A stretch of 37,651 nucleotides of DNA from Candidatus Zixiibacteriota bacterium (GTDB lineage Bacteria; Zixibacteria; MSB-5A5; DSPP01), in assembly GCA_022614805.1 (NCBI GenBank), contig JAKEHY010000005.1, positions 1 to 37,651 of the forward strand, given 5' to 3'. Numbering within the stretch: position 1 is the stretch's first letter; each line of letters begins with the position of its first letter. This document shows positions 1 to 37,651 of this stretch, in pieces. The notes under the pieces were generated by a model. The model saw only the letters and a program-made list of their open reading frames with translations, was not told the DNA's origin and did no database searches. The position numbers were made by a program, and so were the translations under genes.

Positions 1-456
1 CGACAGGGGTTTACGATCCGAAAACCTTCATCCCCCACGCGGCGTTGCTGCGTCAGCCTTGCGGCCATTGCGCAATATTCCCTACTGCTGCCTCCCGTAG
101 GAGTCTGGGCCGTATCTCAGTCCCAGTGTGGCCGGACACCCTCTCAGGCCGGCTACCGATCGTAGGCTTGGTGGGCTTTTATCCCGCCAACTACCTAATC
201 GGGCGCGGGCTCATCTCTATGTGATAGCTTACAAGTAGAGGCCACCTTTGGTTTCCAATCGATGCCGACCGGAAACGTTATTCGGAATTAGACCCCCTTT
301 CGAGGGTTTATGCCAAACATAAAGGAAGATTACCCACGTGTTACGCACCCGTCTGCCACGGCACATCCAACCTTGCGGCCGGATATACCGTACGACTTGC
401 ATGTATGAGGCACGCCGCCAGCGTTCGTTCTGAGCCAGGATCAAACTCTCCAAATT
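1..456 (-). rRNA. rrs: 16S ribosomal RNA, 5' part (partial)
   Basis: The reverse strand carries the universal 16S 5' signature AGAGTTTGATCCTGGCTCAG (complement at 430-449). The conserved ACTCCTACGGGAGGCAGCAG block lies near position 87-106, so the window holds roughly the first 450 bases of the gene, through V1-V2 and into V3. The rest lies beyond the left edge. The mature 5' end is placed near 456 by alignment to the seven bases that precede AGAGTTTG in E. coli. Identity as 16S is certain. The phylum cannot be read reliably by eye; the gene would be the best taxonomic marker in the window. Confidence 0.98.
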
Positions 457-1117: not shown

Positions 1118-2899
1118 TTACGGGTTTGCAGGTTGGGCAGGCACGAATGTCCCTCTTTGCACATTAGCCCCTGTGCCCGCAAAGGGCGGAGTAATACCCT
1201 GAAGAGTATGAAGCAGATTTGGCTGGCTCATGCCGCCGTCTTCCCTATGTCTTACGAAGAATCTCCTGTTTCTCTCACTCCAATCGACGGTTCTAATCTC
1301 ATTGGAAGCCCATGTTTTGTTTCTAAGGAAACTATCATCAAAATTTGGCTGGACAGCGAACGCTTTCTGCCAAATTACCTTTGCCTGGTTGGAAAATTTC
1401 ATATCCAAACCGAAAGTCTCACTTTCTACGCTGCTGGACATGATAGTTAGAACAGGGCTTCCATCAGCTTCGCTATATGGCCCGCTGTTTAGTATTATCA
1501 TCTCGTGCATCAATCCAAGACTATGTCCTATTTCATGCGCTATGACAATGGCCGCCTTTGTTGCCACGGCCTCAAGAAGTTCAATCAGTGCCTGAACGGA
1601 AGGGAATGACCTTTCCCGACTCTCGGCGTCGTGAGTTATTTTCCCCTTGAAAAAGCTGGTCCTGATCTTGATTGGTTTTTCAAGTTTCTTGTTTCCCGAC
1701 CCAATCGGAATTGGGCACGGCAGCATATACTCCCGACCACCCTGGATTGCATTAAATTCTGCGTTCGGTAGCTCCGACTCACCCACTGGAACTATGAGAT
1801 TATCAAGTGTAATAAAGAAATTCCAAAAGGAAGTTTCAAAAAGATTTCGTTGACTTATGAGTCTCCAACGACGATGTCGCCCCGTATCTCGCGTGAATTT
1901 TTGCTTAAAAGCATTAGCCAGTGGTGTTGCAACCGGTTCATCTTCCCACCCTACGGCCCCCTCCGAAAACCCTCCATTGCTGAAAATTCCAAGGAGAACT
2001 TGTTTTAATTTATTCCTTATGCTTGTACGAACCTGGGTGCGTCTTCCTGCTAAACCGGTTCCCGTAACATTTGGTGTTACTCTTTGCCCCAAAAACTGCG
2101 CATCTGGAATCATATCCTCAAGCAAGTCATTCATTAGAACAATCTTCAAACTTCCTGGAACATATGGCTGAAAGGATAGATGATGATCTGCGGGACCGAA
2201 AGGAGGTGATAATTTCACCGGAATGAATTGAGCGGGAGGCGGGTCGGGGAAAGGAGGCCCGCTGGTGTTTCGAAATGCTCCCTGAACAAGATATTCCTCG
2301 TGATGCAGTATTAAATTGCCAATCACGTTCCCGGTGTATCTCATATTGCCGCCGCCTTCTGGGCGCGTCGTAGTTTCCACTTCGTGCCGGCGACGCACAC
2401 GCAGGTTTAGAACAGCTACTTGAGTAACCGTAGGATTTTGCCGGTCGATTTCAGCCACGGCCTTAAATTCCATGAATTGTGCTTCCCTACGGGTGTCCAC
2501 CAGAAAGGGAAGGTTTAGCCGGAATTCTCGATTGAGAAACGTCAATACAAGAGCGTCCACACCGAGAACACACTCCGGGTCGAAGCCGCTTACTTCTCCT
2601 GCATGGGGGTTTTCAGGTGCAGGTCCGAGTACAAGTTCAAAGGTTATACGCCTTTGCTCGGGCTCACTTGGGTTGCGATGAAAAGTTCCGTGAAAGGTGG
2701 CGACCAGCCGATCTTGGGAAACCTCGGCCTCTCCTCTGTGACCGGCTCCAGTCCCGCTGACTTCAAAAATTTGGATCCGCCCGGGGGTCGGGGTTGTCAG
2801 AGTAGGATCGTCTCCGCCGAGTTCTAATCCAATATTGACCCGATTACTGGTGGACCCTACGGGCGAGTTGTTGGGTTTCCACCAGAATCTTATAGGCAT
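1118..2899 (-). CDS. Predicted metzincin-type zinc metalloprotease, 593 aa
   Basis: The sequence contains HEIGHSLGLMH at residues 455-465, an exact HExxHxxGxxH zinc-binding and catalytic motif (His455, Glu456, His459, His465). A plausible Met-turn follows in LTIMSSS (Met487). This identifies a metzincin-clan peptidase by established motif knowledge. The 450 residues before the motif match no family I recognise; they look beta-rich, with acidic and proline-rich stretches. No signal peptide or membrane segment is visible. The start at 2899 has GGGGA about 8 bases upstream. It is the last gene of a three-gene operon, 15 bases behind the LysM/OmpA gene. Base composition near its 3' end is AT-richer than the dcw genes (1261-1320 is 43% GC), hinting at different ancestry. 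The substrate is unknown. The protease call is firm; any effector role is inference. Confidence 0.8.
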   Translation of the reverse strand: MPIRFWWKPNNSPVGSTSNRVNIGLELGGDDPTLTTPTPGRIQIFEVSGTGAGHRGEAEVSQDRLVATFHGTFHRNPSEPEQRRITFELVLGPAPENPHAGEVSGFDPECVLGVDALVLTFLNREFRLNLPFLVDTRREAQFMEFKAVAEIDRQNPTVTQVAVLNLRVRRRHEVETTTRPEGGGNMRYTGNVIGNLILHHEEYLVQGAFRNTSGPPFPDPPPAQFIPVKLSPPFGPADHHLSFQPYVPGSLKIVLMNDLLEDMIPDAQFLGQRVTPNVTGTGLAGRRTQVRTSIRNKLKQVLLGIFSNGGFSEGAVGWEDEPVATPLANAFKQKFTRDTGRHRRWRLISQRNLFETSFWNFFITLDNLIVPVGESELPNAEFNAIQGGREYMLPCPIPIGSGNKKLEKPIKIRTSFFKGKITHDAESRERSFPSVQALIELLEAVATKAAIVIAHEIGHSLGLMHEMIILNSGPYSEADGSPVLTIMSSSVESETFGLDMKFSNQAKVIWQKAFAVQPNFDDSFLRNKTWASNEIRTVDWSERNRRFFVRHREDGGMSQPNLLHTLQGITPPFAGTGANVQRGTFVPAQPANP

Positions 2900-2914
2900 G
2901 CTCTTTTCCCCGTT

Positions 2915-4246
2915 TTAGAAGTGGTCCCTCATCCGAAGGAACCAGGGGGTCCCGGTGTAGTTTTCTTTTTCTGACATATAGTAAACCTCAACGATCTCAC
3001 TTTTTCCACCACAGTCCACTTCGTAATAATCATCGGGCAGGTTTTCATGCCGTAAAACTCCCTGTTCGTCGGTAACGCCACTGATTCTGACGGGGCTGCT
3101 CAAACCGCGGAGCATATACTTGGTATTAGCCAATACTTTCTCCATACTATCATTGAACAGCTTGATAAAGACAAAGCAGATTGGATTACCGATTTCACAC
3201 GGACACTCCCTTGCCACGCTGTCATAAAAACTGCACTTGAAAGTTTCTTTAAATCGCGGTGAGAGTTGAACCATTTGCTTTTTGCAGGGGCCGATGTCGC
3301 CAAGTTTACAAGGCAGTGTCGGCAGGCGGTCGGGGTGGAACAAATAAAACACCACCCGCCGGTTGGGCTCGTGGGCGGTCTCGACGTTGTCGACCGGATT
3401 GAACTCCCCGCACCCCATAAACTTCGGTTCCATAAACTGGTCGGGGGTCAGCTGAACGTCGTGCTTGCTGGTCATATATTCGCGGAACATCGTCTTGCGG
3501 GTCTGCGAACCGACGATGCCATCGACGGCCAGCCCTCGGTCTTGCTGGTAGCGGCGCACGGCTGCCTTTAACGAGGCGGTTGAACTTCCGGGGTCGTATG
3601 GCCCGCCAAAATCCAACAGAATCTGGCGAATCACATCCATCCCCCAGTCCTCTTCATTATAAAGTTCTTCCCAGGTGTCGGCGTCATTGGTGATGAAAGC
3701 CAGGGTGCTTCTGGCCCGCCGTTCGGAAAGCTCTTTGTTGTACTGTTCGCTCCCCACCTTGTCCGTGTGCCCGAAAATCATAACCTTTGCATTCGGATGC
3801 TTGGCAACCGCTTCTTCCAACTTTTTCAGGTGGTCAACGACAGAGGGACGAATGAATGATTTGTCGAACTCGAAGGTGACCCCCGGGATCTCGCAGCATT
3901 CCAGAAACTGGGGAGCCGGAGAGGGTTTCTTGCGAACCCGCAGGGTGTGGGTCCGCTCGGTCGCCAGTCCCGGTTTTGCAAAGCGTACCGGAATCAGAAG
4001 CTTCTCCTGTGGTTGGTCCTCGGTGGAGATGATAAAATTTTTGGTGCCATCCCGCTTGCGGCACCCCAGTTTATCCCGCAGGCATTCGTTGACCGCCTTC
4101 TCCTCGTCCGTGCCCCAGTTGAATTTGGCCAGCTCCTGCCAGGTTATCGGATTGCCGGCGGCCCGCTCCCGCTCGGCAATCGATTGCAAACTGTCCCCCT
4201 CCTTGGGCTCGTACTTTTTGGCTTTGTCCCGCTTCTCAAAACCCAT
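2915..4246 (-). CDS. LysM / OmpA-like / peptidoglycan-binding multidomain protein, 443 aa
   Basis: Residues about 13-86 look like a LysM-type module, from EGDSLQSIAERERAAG to KLLIPVRF. An OmpA-like peptidoglycan-binding core begins at 122 and includes FGHTDKVGSEQYNKELSERR (159-178). Its C-terminal strand resumes only at 278-303 (GCGEFNP...NRRVVFYLF). Between them, at about 205-255, lies a PG_binding_1-like unit (AVRRYQQDRGLAVDGIVGSQ), so that domain appears nested inside the OmpA fold. Residues 313-357 hold six cysteines. The C-terminal 80 residues form an Ig-like or carboxypeptidase-regulatory-like module (GVTDEQGVLRHENLPDDYY). There is no signal peptide or lipobox, which is unusual for an OmpA-like protein. 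The start is supported by AGGGA 6 bases upstream. It lies 8 bases behind the 194-aa gene, which has a similar terminal module. Confidence 0.75.
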   Translation of the reverse strand: MGFEKRDKAKKYEPKEGDSLQSIAERERAAGNPITWQELAKFNWGTDEEKAVNECLRDKLGCRKRDGTKNFIISTEDQPQEKLLIPVRFAKPGLATERTHTLRVRKKPSPAPQFLECCEIPGVTFEFDKSFIRPSVVDHLKKLEEAVAKHPNAKVMIFGHTDKVGSEQYNKELSERRARSTLAFITNDADTWEELYNEEDWGMDVIRQILLDFGGPYDPGSSTASLKAAVRRYQQDRGLAVDGIVGSQTRKTMFREYMTSKHDVQLTPDQFMEPKFMGCGEFNPVDNVETAHEPNRRVVFYLFHPDRLPTLPCKLGDIGPCKKQMVQLSPRFKETFKCSFYDSVARECPCEIGNPICFVFIKLFNDSMEKVLANTKYMLRGLSSPVRISGVTDEQGVLRHENLPDDYYEVDCGGKSEIVEVYYMSEKENYTGTPWFLRMRDHF

Positions 4247-4254
4247 TGGAGTCC

Positions 4255-4839
4255 CTATTCAACTCGAACAACCTCGAAGGCGTCCGGGTCCTCCATTTTT
4301 TGCAGCTCGCAGCTCCCGGGAGGGAGGTCCCGGATTTCCACCGTCCCGCCGGCGTTCGTGCGGAAGTCCTTGACCGTCCCGTCCGGCAATTTGAGGGTGA
4401 GCACCACCCCTTCCACCGGCTGGCCGCTCTCGTCGTCCACAATCAGAAACTTGACCCACTTGGACTCCTTGACTCGGGTAGGAGGGGGAGGCGCTTCCTC
4501 AATCACAGCCGCTTCCCTCTTGGACGAGGCGGCCGCAGCTTCCTCCTTCACAGCCGGGGTTTCCCGGCGGGGCAGGATATGTATCTCTCCTCCTGCAACC
4601 CGCCATATTAATTGCTGAATAACCTCCCGGTCTTCCAGTTGAGAAATATTTCCGGAAGAAACCCTTTCTGCCAGAATCTGCCGCAGGGTCGCCATACTCA
4701 AAGGGTCCCCCAAAAAGTTGGAAAGAAAGTGGGTAACCGAAAGCTCGTCTCGAAACTCCCCGGTCGTATCCGAAAAACGGCTCTCCCACCAGTCCAGAAT
4801 TTCAAATTCTCGCAGGTTCCTTCTGAAAACTCTTCCCAC
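4255..4839 (-). CDS. Hypothetical protein with C-terminal Ig/carboxypeptidase-regulatory-like module, 194 aa
   Basis: Residues 1-91 form a helical region of unknown family. Residues 92-122 are an Ala/Glu/Pro-rich linker. Residues about 129-180 contain FLIVDDESGQPVEGVVLTLK and a GT(V)xxxxLPPG pattern typical of small beta-sandwich modules (CarboxypepD_reg-like). A comparable module ends the next protein in the operon. The start is GTG at 4839 with GAGG 5 bases upstream; it is the first gene after a predicted promoter. No signal peptide or membrane helix is visible. I do not recognise the N-terminal domain. Proteins with such modules often occur beside secretion or injection systems, but nothing in this sequence proves that here. 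Confidence 0.7.
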   Translation of the reverse strand: MGRVFRRNLREFEILDWWESRFSDTTGEFRDELSVTHFLSNFLGDPLSMATLRQILAERVSSGNISQLEDREVIQQLIWRVAGGEIHILPRRETPAVKEEAAAASSKREAAVIEEAPPPPTRVKESKWVKFLIVDDESGQPVEGVVLTLKLPDGTVKDFRTNAGGTVEIRDLPPGSCELQKMEDPDAFEVVRVE

Positions 4840-35684: not shown

Positions 35685-37651
35685 TTAGAATTTCGTCACC
35701 ATAACCCGGAACGTGCCGGAAGCCGGGTTTTGGGCCGCTGCCGAATAGTTGTTATAACGAATGGTCACGGTGCCTGCAACATTACAGTAAGCTGTGTAGC
35801 AACTGTTGGTAAGCGTTGTGGCCCCGCCGCCCGAGATACCCAGGGAGATTACATCCCCGACCGCCGCTCCGGCGACCCCGAGACCAACCTCCGACGAGGA
35901 CTGGGCGGCTGTGAGTGGAAAGTCAATCACGGCCGAGAGGCTAAGCACTTGAACGATGGGCGTGCCGCCGCCGATTTCCACGCTCCCGGCCACGTCTAAT
36001 TTTGCCGATGGAGCGGTCGTCCCAATGCCGACGTTGCCTGTGCTTGAGATATGCATCCTAGTAAGGCCTCCCGTGCCAACTTGCATTGCATCGGTTGCGT
36101 TACTGTATGTAACATAACCGGCATATGCGCTCGTGTTATCGCCGAAGCTTATACGTCCGCTGCCGGCAGTGCCCCCGATGACATTGACGGAGGCGATGTC
36201 GACGGCGGCGGCGTTGTTATTGACCACCACCCCTTCGTTAAGCAGGTCACCCGGCAGCCCTTGGCCGCTTCCTCTGTTGACGTGCAGCCGGGCCGATGGG
36301 CCGGCCGTCCCGATGCCGACGTCGCCTGCGCTGGCGATGTGCACTCTATTGAGGCCTCCCGTGCCTAACTGCAGGGCATCGGTTGCATTACTGTAGTTAA
36401 TGTAACCGGCATACGCGCTGGCGTTATCACCGAAGGTTATGCGGCCGCTTCCGGTAGTGCCCCCGATGACATTGACGGAGGCGATATCCACGGATGCGGC
36501 GTTGTTGTTGACCACCAACCCTTCGTTAAGCAAGTCACCCGGCAATCCCTGGCCGCTTGCCCTGTTGATGTGCAGCTTGGCTGATGGCGTATTCGTCCCG
36601 ATGCCAACGCTGCCCTCCACTAAAAGACCATTGACAGGAGCGGCCGTTCCTGCGAAAAAGGAGCCGATTGCCGCATTTCCTCCCACATCCAATGTATTCT
36701 GCTGGCTAAGTGTTCCGATTGCCACCCTGCCGTTGTTGGCTATTCTTACCCGAGTCGTCCCTCCGGTTTCAAAATCTATTAGCCCGGATGTTCGGTTGTT
36801 AACAATAGACATTCCATTGGATGCGCCGAAAACTGTTATGCTCGCCAGGCCGGAATTGCCAAAGTCTATTCTTTCTTGGGCAACGCCGCCCACATTGGGG
36901 TTTTCAATCCGCAGGCCGACGGAGGTGTTGGCATCCTGGAAAATATGCAAATTTCTTTGCGGAGCAGTCGTTCCGATGCCGAGGTAACCAGTTACATCAG
37001 CTATATACGCCCGGGTCGTTCCGGCGGGGGCCTGCAGGGAAAGCGGGCTGTTGCTGGAAAGGACGTTGGAAAAGACGGTGTCCGCTTTGACGCTCCCAAC
37101 CACTTCCAGCTTTTTGGTGGGGCTGGAGGTGCCGATGCCAACTTGGCCCTCGACCAAAAGGCCGTTGGCCGGCGCCGTGAAGGATCCCGAATAGTTAGCT
37201 CCTACGGCGGCTCCGCCTTCAACGTCCAACTTATTTGCGGTCCCGAGCGTTCCGATGCCAACATTGCCGCTGTTGCCGATGAAAAGCCTTGACGTACCGC
37301 CTACATGGAACCCCAAGGTTCCCGAGGTTCGGTTGTTGACAATGGACATTTCATTGGTTGAACCCAAAACATTTATGTGGGCCGCGCCATCGCCAAAATC
37401 GATTCTTTCCTGGGCGGCTAAGCCCGCGTTGGGATTTTCAATCCGCAGGCCGACATCGGCGTTGACATCCTCGAAAATATGCAAATTGCTTAGCGGGGCG
37501 GCCGTCCCGACGCCGACATTGTCGGTGCCCGTAGAAAGACGGACGACGGCGCCGTCATCCGTCCAGCCGCTGGGGGTGGCCCCTTGGTCAACGGCCGTAA
37601 CCACCGAGCCGTCCTGATTGATGGCCCTGATGAATGAGCCGGGTGCCGCGA
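35685..37651 (-). CDS. Repetitive fibre-like surface/tail protein, C-terminal part (partial)
   Basis: The frame is open through the right edge, so the N-terminus is missing; at least 655 codons are visible. The protein has eight copies of a short motif of the form VGIGTxxPSAKLxV, spaced by Gly/Ser/Asn-rich beta-prone sequence. This is typical of phage tail fibres and their bacterial relatives, which form trimeric beta-helical shafts. Two long segments are near duplicates: one with a 288-base period (units around 36050-36340 and 36340-36630), another with about 537 bases (around 36790 and 37330). The C-terminal 80 residues, with GAAVGDVISLG and PASGTFRVMVTKF, resemble a common fibre-tip domain. 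There is no endosialidase (S74) chaperone signature. Surface adhesin, phage-derived fibre or tailocin fibre are all possible. Confidence 0.8.
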   Translation of the reverse strand, partial: AAPGSFIRAINQDGSVVTAVDQGATPSGWTDDGAVVRLSTGTDNVGVGTAAPLSNLHIFEDVNADVGLRIENPNAGLAAQERIDFGDGAAHINVLGSTNEMSIVNNRTSGTLGFHVGGTSRLFIGNSGNVGIGTLGTANKLDVEGGAAVGANYSGSFTAPANGLLVEGQVGIGTSSPTKKLEVVGSVKADTVFSNVLSSNSPLSLQAPAGTTRAYIADVTGYLGIGTTAPQRNLHIFQDANTSVGLRIENPNVGGVAQERIDFGNSGLASITVFGASNGMSIVNNRTSGLIDFETGGTTRVRIANNGRVAIGTLSQQNTLDVGGNAAIGSFFAGTAAPVNGLLVEGSVGIGTNTPSAKLHINRASGQGLPGDLLNEGLVVNNNAASVDIASVNVIGGTTGSGRITFGDNASAYAGYINYSNATDALQLGTGGLNRVHIASAGDVGIGTAGPSARLHVNRGSGQGLPGDLLNEGVVVNNNAAAVDIASVNVIGGTAGSGRISFGDNTSAYAGYVTYSNATDAMQVGTGGLTRMHISSTGNVGIGTTAPSAKLDVAGSVEIGGGTPIVQVLSLSAVIDFPLTAAQSSSEVGLGVAGAAVGDVISLGISGGGATTLTNSCYTAYCNVAGTVTIRYNNYSAAAQNPASGTFRVMVTKF
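36050..36630. repeat. Internal 288-bp tandem duplication in the fibre-like gene
   Basis: Two nearly identical 96-codon units sit side by side. For example CTTCGTTAAGCAGGTCACCC at 36233 recurs with two changes at 36521, exactly 288 bases later. The encoded units share SGQGLPGDLLNEG, VNNNAA and YAGY segments, with mostly conservative substitutions. This indicates a recent in-frame duplication lengthening the fibre shaft. Confidence 0.75.

What the first reader, a model, noticed from the sequence alone, without database searches (positions are those of the whole stretch)
2915..4246. Peptidoglycan-binding domain apparently nested inside an OmpA-like domain
The OmpA core (FGHTDKVGS...SERRARS) ends near residue 185, yet its final strand motif GCGEFNP...NRRVVFYLF appears only at 278-303. 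In between lies a complete PG_binding_1-like repeat. An OmpA fold interrupted by a second wall-binding domain is unusual and would give bivalent attachment to peptidoglycan.
Basis: partly seen in the sequence, partly recalled or inferred. Interest (0 to 1): 0.5.

Follow-up and report, generated by a model that had tools for sequence, protein, structure and literature searches.

The report
Wall-binding domain nested inside another
A bacterium of a little-studied phylum carries a protein in which one cell-wall-binding domain appears to be inserted inside another, and related genes suggest this double module is cargo of a syringe-like secretion machine that brings protein-cutting enzymes to the wall of neighbouring cells.

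Summary
The 443-residue protein (2915-4246, minus strand) has the first two thirds of an OmpA-like domain, a PG_binding_1-like domain, then the last third of the OmpA domain. A module-only AlphaFold model (pLDDT 79.9, pTM 0.80) aligns to complete OmpA-like structures across the insert (best: T6SS TagL, 110 of 114 residues, Z 12.1). TagL's wall-binding positions are kept in 37-40 of 40 related modules.

It is unlikely to anchor the cell's own wall. None of the 40 has a signal-like N-terminus. Two paralogues lie beside VgrG in this genome's T6SS cluster; relatives follow PAAR or transthyretin-like (TTR) genes. Fifteen of 40 carry HExxH after the module, and in 10 of 14 such cases the next gene has a signal-like start (candidate immunity). 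Others, the window copy included, end in a TTR-like tail; here a separate metzincin-like gene follows.

Best reading: T6SS cargo module that keeps peptidoglycan binding. Delivery, toxicity and wall binding are inferred. Against it: the window cassette has no T6SS core gene or immunity candidate beside it, and four module genomes lack TssB. New variant of a known kind.

The parts
4255..4839 (-). 194-aa protein with a C-terminal transthyretin-like (prealbumin) domain, directly upstream (9 bp); proposed T6SS loading adaptor
   Evidence: Pfam SpaA 25.4 bits, cut-off 23.1; CarboxypepD_reg 32.1, cut-off 32.3; relatives directly upstream of the module gene in 6 of the 9 other close loci
2915..4246 (-). 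443-aa module protein, the finding
   Evidence: ORF, Pfam, models
4112..4213 (-). LysM-like N-terminal region, residues about 12-45
   Evidence: Pfam LysM 11.7 bits, below the cut-off of 20.9; relative L081 is above it, 21.7
3686..3907 (-). OmpA-like domain, first part (residues 114-187): strands 1 and 2, helices 1 and 2, with D162, N170, L173, S174, R177, A178
3455..3685 (-). nested PG_binding_1-like helical domain (residues 188-264)
   Evidence: Pfam 220-253; full-length model aligned to 6tci over 61 of 73 residues, Z 8.1, and 3bkh over 68 residues, Z 8.5
3335..3445 (-). OmpA-like domain, last part (residues 268-304): strands 3 and 4, GCGEFNP and NRRV
3197..3310 (-). cysteine-rich segment (residues 313-350)
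   Evidence: C313, C321, C338, C348 invariant in the 10 sequences of A6; role unknown
2972..3178 (-). TTR-like tail (residues 357-425)
   Evidence: profile comparison of four such tails with TTR adaptors, E 2.1e-10; profile search; Pfam alone did not report it
1118..2899 (-). 593-aa metzincin-like protein, 16 bp downstream; proposed cargo
   Evidence: motif HEIGHSLGLMH from residue 455; all Pfam metallopeptidase matches below cut-off (best Reprolysin_4 21.1, cut-off 22); no signal-like start
1505..1537 (-). zinc-binding motif HExxHxxGxxH of the metzincin-like protein

Best explanation
The gene belongs to a three-gene cargo cassette of a type VI secretion system. The upstream TTR protein helps to load the cassette on the VgrG/PAAR spike. 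The 443-aa protein is a carrier: after injection its OmpA[PG_binding_1] module docks on peptidoglycan of the target cell, and its TTR-like tail, which stands where relatives carry a fused peptidase-like region, recruits the separately encoded metzincin-like protein, so that the peptidase works held at the wall. Shown by computation: nested fold (as models), kept wall-binding positions, absence of signal-like starts, T6SS neighbourhood of paralogues and many relatives, fused and split forms, zinc motif. Inferred: secretion, spike loading, wall binding in the target, contact of tail and cargo, toxicity.
For: Paralogues 2-6 kb from VgrG and ClpV in the same genome. TTR gene directly upstream, same strand, in 7 of 10 close loci including the window; PAAR-TTR instead in L081. 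PAAR-TTR directly upstream in 5 of 8 fetched loci of the larger-frame family (the 8 were chosen for a TssB on the same contig). The five genomes with the strongest module matches in the phylum are among the nine with TssB at E below 1e-50. TssB in 10 of 11 module genomes tested outside the phylum against 2 of 20 planctomycete genomes without the module. No signal-like start in 40 of 40. HExxH after the module in 15 of 40, shuffles mean 0.68, maximum 4. Next gene signal-like in 10 of 14 with HExxH against 1 of 19 without. TTR-like tail in 10 of 25 without HExxH, four of them in the training set, against 0 of 15 with it. TagL wall-binding positions kept in 37 to 40 of 40. At least 11 copies in one planctomycete genome. 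Precedents: LysM proteins of vgrG loci bridge VgrG and effector (PMC10673891, passages); VgrG TTR domains recruit effectors (PMC6560169, passages); VgrG2b is a T6SS metallopeptidase toxic in the periplasm (PMC6899460, abstract and two sections).
Against: No T6SS marker other than the TTR gene was found in the 37.6-kb window by phmmer with 14 query proteins, and no immunity candidate follows the metzincin gene: the next feature is 16S rRNA. The metzincin-like protein found no relative among the held frames (phmmer E 1e-3), so it is not shown to be the split counterpart of the fused peptidases. Four genomes with TssB below 1e-50 (G001, G012, G032, G038) have no module match, and four module genomes (G034, G040, G050, G155) have no TssB match. 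The planctomycete loci L101-L118 and L042, L119, L120, L129, L130 show no T6SS marker in the stretch held. Ten of 25 proteins without HExxH have a TTR-like tail; the other 15 have neither. Nothing here is experimental.
Confidence: 0.55

Rival explanations
1. Loading only: the wall-binding folds are re-used to hold cargo on the VgrG/PAAR spike inside the producing cell, and peptidoglycan binding is vestigial or irrelevant.
For: LysM proteins of vgrG loci mediate VgrG-effector binding, and PG_binding_1 is one of six domain families enriched at vgrG loci (PMC10673891, abstract and passages). Module genes directly follow TTR or PAAR-TTR genes in many loci.
Against: The TagL-type peptidoglycan contact positions stay nearly invariant (D162 40 of 40, N170 39, L173 40, R177 40), which loading alone would not require. 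The two roles do not exclude each other.
Confidence: 0.2
2. Own-envelope anchor: a TagL-like or Pal-like protein that ties the producer's secretion machine or outer membrane to its own wall at two points.
For: Closest structural match is TagL, a T6SS wall anchor; two wall-binding folds in one protein.
Against: No signal-like start in 40 of 40 (largest hydropathy 1.55 in the first 50 residues, up to 2.17 anywhere before the module, against 2.71-3.40 in nine ordinary OmpA proteins). Many copies per genome and variable C-terminal parts are unlike an anchor.
Confidence: 0.1
3. The interrupted OmpA domain is itself the toxin: it sequesters peptidoglycan peptides in the target, as proposed for C-terminal OmpA domains of phage-tail-like (PVC) toxins.
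For: PMC3482391 proposes such a role for OmpA at the extreme C-terminus of PVC-delivered toxins (passages). 25 of 40 module proteins have no HExxH after the module.
Against: The module is followed by 148 to 1565 residues in the 40 proteins, and 15 of 40 have HExxH there; an N-terminal or central carrier place fits better.
Confidence: 0.08
4. Not nested: the OmpA-like part is a truncated domain and the later NRRV segment belongs to another fold.
For: Pfam reports OmpA only to profile position 66 of 98; pLDDT is under 50 at residues 283-294.
Against: The late segment aligns to the missing OmpA columns with 0 of 200 shuffles reaching its score; structural alignments run across the insert; RR of NRRV kept in 40 of 40.
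Confidence: 0.04

Closest known systems
TagL peptidoglycan-binding domain, T6SS accessory protein (PDB 5m38, 7bba; PMC8253398, passages seen)
   Same: OmpA-like fold (Z 12.1 over 110 of 114 residues) and the wall-binding positions Asp, Asn, Leu, Ser, Arg, Ala; linked to T6SS.
   Different: TagL anchors the producer's own machine and has no nested domain; here no signal-like start, and cargo-like C-terminal parts follow.
PorE C-terminal domain, T9SS (PDB 6top; PMC7192894, one passage seen)
   Same: An OmpA-like fold with an insertion between strands 2 and 3.
   Different: The PorE insertion is three helices of the domain itself; here it is a recognisable PG_binding_1-like domain of about 77 residues.
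Tox-OmpA in PVC-type polymorphic toxins (PMC3482391, passages seen)
   Same: OmpA domains in proteins delivered by a phage-tail-like system.
   Different: There always at the extreme C-terminus; here before a variable C-terminal part and interrupted by PG_binding_1.
LysM and PG_binding_1 proteins of vgrG loci (PMC10673891, abstract and passages seen)
   Same: Wall-binding domains in T6SS cargo loci, separate or fused N-terminal to toxins.
   Different: OmpA was not found in that text (0 occurrences); no nesting seen in the passages read.
VgrG2b C-terminal metallopeptidase and its relatives (PMC6899460, abstract and two sections seen)
   Same: T6SS-delivered HExxH peptidase acting in the periplasm, immunity gene next door.
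   Different: Attached to VgrG, PAAR or free; no OmpA[PG_binding_1] carrier in the sections read. Homology of the peptidases was not tested.

Membership tests
OmpA-like domain (PF00691) | Profile score above the curated cut-off | tested here: met
   45.3 bits, cut-off 27.2, profile positions 1-66 of 98
OmpA-like domain (PF00691) | Complete fold including strands 3 and 4 | tested here: met
   Models align over the whole domain across the insert; prediction only
OmpA-like domain (PF00691) | Helix 3 between strands 3 and 4 | tested here: inconclusive
   Residues 283-294 have pLDDT under 50
OmpA-like domain (PF00691) | Diaminopimelate-contact positions Asp, Asn, Leu, Arg | tested here: met
   Kept in 40, 39, 40 and 40 of 40 modules; correspondence to TagL by spacing
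OmpA-like domain (PF00691) | Binds peptidoglycan | not testable with these tools
   Needs a binding assay
PG_binding_1 (PF01471) | Profile score above the curated cut-off | tested here: met
   35.9 bits, cut-off 23; positions 24-57 of 57 here, 5-57 in L073, L075, L080
LysM (PF01476) | Profile score above the curated cut-off | tested here: not met
   11.7 bits, cut-off 20.9; relative L081 21.7
TagL | Membrane-anchored envelope protein (recalled) | tested here: not met
   No signal-like or strongly hydrophobic stretch in the first 50 residues
T6SS cargo | Encoded in or beside a T6SS locus | tested here: inconclusive
   Met by the paralogues and many relatives; the window copy has only a TTR gene beside it
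T6SS cargo | No Sec signal | tested here: met
   Hydropathy of the first 50 residues in 40 of 40
T6SS cargo | T6SS-dependent secretion | not testable with these tools
   Needs a secretion assay
T6SS antibacterial effector | Adjacent immunity gene | tested here: not met
   None found next to the window cassette; candidate in 10 of 14 HExxH relatives
Metzincin (593-aa neighbour) | HExxHxxGxxH motif | tested here: met
   HEIGHSLGLMH from residue 455
Metzincin (593-aa neighbour) | Pfam score above the cut-off of a metzincin family | tested here: not met
   Best Reprolysin_4 21.1, cut-off 22
Transthyretin-like tail of the 443-aa protein | Profile similarity to TTR domains | tested here: met
   E 2.1e-10 for four tails against five TTR adaptors; Pfam did not report it

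The most novel reading that the evidence does not exclude
The OmpA[PG_binding_1] module marks a class of polymorphic cargo of contractile injection systems, T6SS in Zixiibacteriota, Planctomycetota, an Acidobacteria genome and a Rhodothermia genome, and perhaps phage-sheath-type systems in lineages without TssB: a double-grip wall-docking carrier that is either fused to HExxH peptidases guarded by envelope lipoproteins, or carries a TTR tail and brings a separately encoded cargo.
Probability: 0.5. Interest if true: 0.7.

Novelty: new variant of a known kind. Interest (0 to 1): 0.55.

Why it matters
Cargo of contractile injection systems is found largely through marker domains (MIX and RIX are named in listings). 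A recognisable nested module would be such a marker in phyla where little is known of these systems. It would also show two wall-binding domains combined by insertion, not in tandem, and the fused and split forms would make it possible to test how TTR domains recruit cargo.

Tried and rejected
The single-protein scan of genome contigs found no relative. Plasmid and phage records matched stretches of 14-23% of the query, around the OmpA part. The viral structure library gave no match with E up to 0.001. PHROGs matched only the OmpA and PG-binding parts. NCBIfam gave no family above its cut-off for the window protein or for the five relatives and neighbours scanned. Foldseek gave no match up to 0.001 for the full-length model and four for the module model. 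The phylum of the Phenylobacterium genome gave 0 of 398 at E 1e-15; no genome known to match was in that set, so this shows little. Locus L082 was dropped (weak match to part of the insert; no match in its genome). Four partial hits (in L105, L111, L112, L116) were dropped before the count of 40; L105 has another, whole module that was kept. Among the 15 HExxH proteins, L125 has HEFTH and L128 has HERAH besides HELGH; L080 and L073 were not counted as signal-like next genes though L080 has a lipobox pattern. The next gene was taken as the longest same-strand frame, which is unreliable in the G+C-rich planctomycete loci. Start codons are the first ATG, GTG or TTG of a frame. Residue labels are one too high (compare). 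Fisher values ignore kinship and were computed after seeing the data. The sets of genomes by phylum contain the seed genome that led to them. The eight larger-frame loci were fetched because a TssB lay on the same contig. No paper describing this nesting was seen in the listings; the library is open-access only.

Full report
Observation. The ORF at 2915-4246 (minus strand) encodes 443 aa. Pfam finds OmpA at residues 124-187, stopping at profile position 66 of 98, and PG_binding_1 at 220-253. The missing last third of OmpA comes after the insert: residues 121-188 align to columns 5-72 of a profile of 14 ordinary OmpA domains of the phylum, residues 275-303 to columns 80-110, and 0 of 200 column shuffles of the late segment reached its score. 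GHTD and NRRV are 59 residues apart in the 15 ordinary OmpA domains that a pattern found among 27 loci (it looked no further than about 97 residues) and 136 apart here.

Structure. The full-length AlphaFold2 model, from 10 sequences, has mean pLDDT 66.4 and pTM 0.50. VIA-align places model residues 112-308 on 115 of 120 residues of the OmpA domain 7rjj (Z 9.0, rmsd 3.0), and residues 195-258 on 61 of 73 residues of the SleB N-terminal domain 6tci (Z 8.1, rmsd 2.1). The module alone (residues 108-322) reached pLDDT 79.9 and pTM 0.80. It aligns to TagL 5m38_C over 110 of 114 residues (Z 12.1, rmsd 2.8); the 50 rows shown are OmpA, Pal, MotB and related domains, with alignments that start at model residues 1-11 and end at 195-207, that is, across the insert. 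Strands 3 and 4 (window residues 271-278 and 296-303) come after the insert. Residues 283-294 have pLDDT under 50, so helix 3 is open.

Relatives. In the same genome two paralogues match residues 117-414 and 117-411 at 40 and 39% identity. Among 98 relatives searched with the whole protein, four others give long matches at 53-58% identity. With a profile of the insert and the last OmpA part, 37 of 132 genomes of the phylum match at E 1e-6, a count that includes matches to PG-binding domains only. The phylum is Candidatus Zixiibacteriota: contigs of same-class genomes have the lengths of contigs so titled. A scan of genome contigs gave ten loci; nine were used, titled Acidobacteria, Sedimentisphaerales, Phycisphaerae, Rhodothermia, Zixiibacteriota (three) or only bacterium (two). 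At E 1e-15 the module is in 7 of 294 genomes of the Phycisphaerae genome's phylum, with at least 11 places in one, in 1 of 297 of the Acidobacteria genome's phylum, the seed itself, in 3 of 296 of the Rhodothermia genome's phylum and in 0 of 398 of the Phenylobacterium genome's phylum. The first three samples contain the seed genome.

Forty modules. In 44 loci held with flanking DNA I found 40 whole modules and set aside 4 partial hits. In TagL, Asp486, Asn494, Leu497 and Arg501 contact diaminopimelate, and Asn494, Leu497, Ser498, Arg501 and Ala502 were shown to be needed for wall binding (PMC8253398, passages). By spacing these are D162, N170, L173, S174, R177, A178 here, kept in 40, 39, 40, 40, 40 and 37 of 40. 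The profile used to find the modules includes these positions, which favours them. The tyrosine of GYGE, invariant in 14 ordinary OmpA domains, is a cysteine (C279) in 39 of 40 (labels corrected by one). No module protein has a signal-like start: the largest 12-residue hydropathy in the first 50 residues is 1.55, against 2.71-3.40 in nine ordinary OmpA proteins; anywhere before the module it reaches 2.17.

Context. The paralogues lie in a T6SS cluster. Pfam confirms VgrG (Phage_GPD, Gp5_trimer_C, Phage_base_V), a DUF4280 protein and a LysM plus PG_binding_1 protein; ClpV, TssF and TssG are my reading of ORFs. TssB of this genome is on another contig. In ten close loci, the window included, a TTR gene like 4255-4839 lies upstream on the same strand within 166 bp in seven; in L073 it is 1.5 kb off on the other strand, L081 has a PAAR-TTR gene, and L079 begins at a contig end. 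A larger-frame group occurs elsewhere in the phylum: outside the ten best places, 23 frames of 690 aa or more match, some over part of the profile. Of these, 11 lie 6-13 kb from a weak but above-cut-off TssB match on the same contig, 8 genomes have TssB on another contig and 4 have none (my count). I fetched 8 of the 11; PAAR-TTR is directly upstream of the module in 5 of these 8, a LysM-TTR-PG_binding-like gene in one (L124) and, with an overlapping over-long start, PAAR-TTR in L123; L128 has neither. Nine genomes of the phylum have TssB at E below 1e-50, and the five with the strongest module matches are among them; four of the nine have no module match. Outside the phylum TssB was found in 10 of 11 module genomes and in 2 of 20 planctomycete genomes without the module. 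The four module genomes without TssB (G034, G040, G050, G155) have a phage-type sheath gene, as do six of the other ten; this may mean another contractile system or prophage tails. The planctomycete loci and L042, L119, L120, L129, L130 show no T6SS marker in the stretch held.

Two forms. HExxH follows the module in 15 of 40 proteins (shuffles mean 0.68, maximum 4). A TTR-like tail is found in 0 of these 15 and in 10 of the other 25, four of which trained the profile. The window protein is of the second form: tails of this kind align to TTR adaptors (E 2.1e-10), and the gene 16 bp on encodes a metzincin-like protein with HEIGHSLGLMH. That protein had no relative among the held frames. The gene after the module has a signal-like start in 10 of 14 HExxH cases, eight of them with a lipobox-like pattern, and in 1 of 19 others (Fisher 1e-4, kinship ignored). 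I read these as candidate immunity proteins of the periplasm. The window cassette has none; the next feature is 16S rRNA at 1-456.

Mechanism. TTR domains of VgrG recruit effectors directly or through adaptors (PMC6560169, passages). LysM proteins of vgrG loci bridge VgrG and effector (PMC10673891, passages). VgrG2b shows that a T6SS delivers an HExxH peptidase that is toxic in the periplasm and does not hydrolyse peptidoglycan (PMC6899460, abstract and two sections). I therefore think that the module is cargo that keeps wall binding and holds a peptidase at the target's wall. Loading on the spike by the same domains is an alternative that may also be true.

Verdict. The nesting is well supported by models and conservation. 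The family is a new variant made of known parts, in an arrangement I did not see described in the papers found by the searches named. Its function is inferred.

Noticed in passing
window 1-456, minus strand: 5' part of a 16S rRNA gene, cut by the contig end (Rfam RF00177); the cassette lies directly upstream of this rRNA gene.
   Followed up: partly
window 1118-4839: G+C of the cassette is 0.519, below every 3.7-kb stretch of the rest (0.537-0.618), which may point to acquisition.
   Followed up: partly
L007 and L008 (own genome, contig C13): T6SS cluster with two similar tandem units, each a module protein and a cargo-like protein (492 and at least 406 aa) without Pfam match, beside LysM-TTR-PG_binding_1 proteins.
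   Followed up: partly
L121 15771-16211 and many Zixiibacteriota genomes: A divergent TssB of about 146 aa, weak but above the Pfam cut-off, in a T6SS-like cluster with split ClpV-like frames.
   Followed up: no
L042 7510-10653, L129, L130: Module proteins with a long coiled-coil-like N-terminal part, followed by a zinc-ribbon-like protein with a weak Extensin-like_C match (25.0, cut-off 25.4), in genomes with a phage-type sheath and no TssB.
   Followed up: partly
window 3410-3412 (C279): Tyrosine of the OmpA motif GYGE is replaced by cysteine in 39 of 40 modules; further conserved cysteines follow. Role unknown.
   Followed up: partly
window 35685-37649, minus strand: Open-ended frame of 654 aa with repeated VGIGT...KLDV-like segments, as in fibre or surface proteins.
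   Followed up: no
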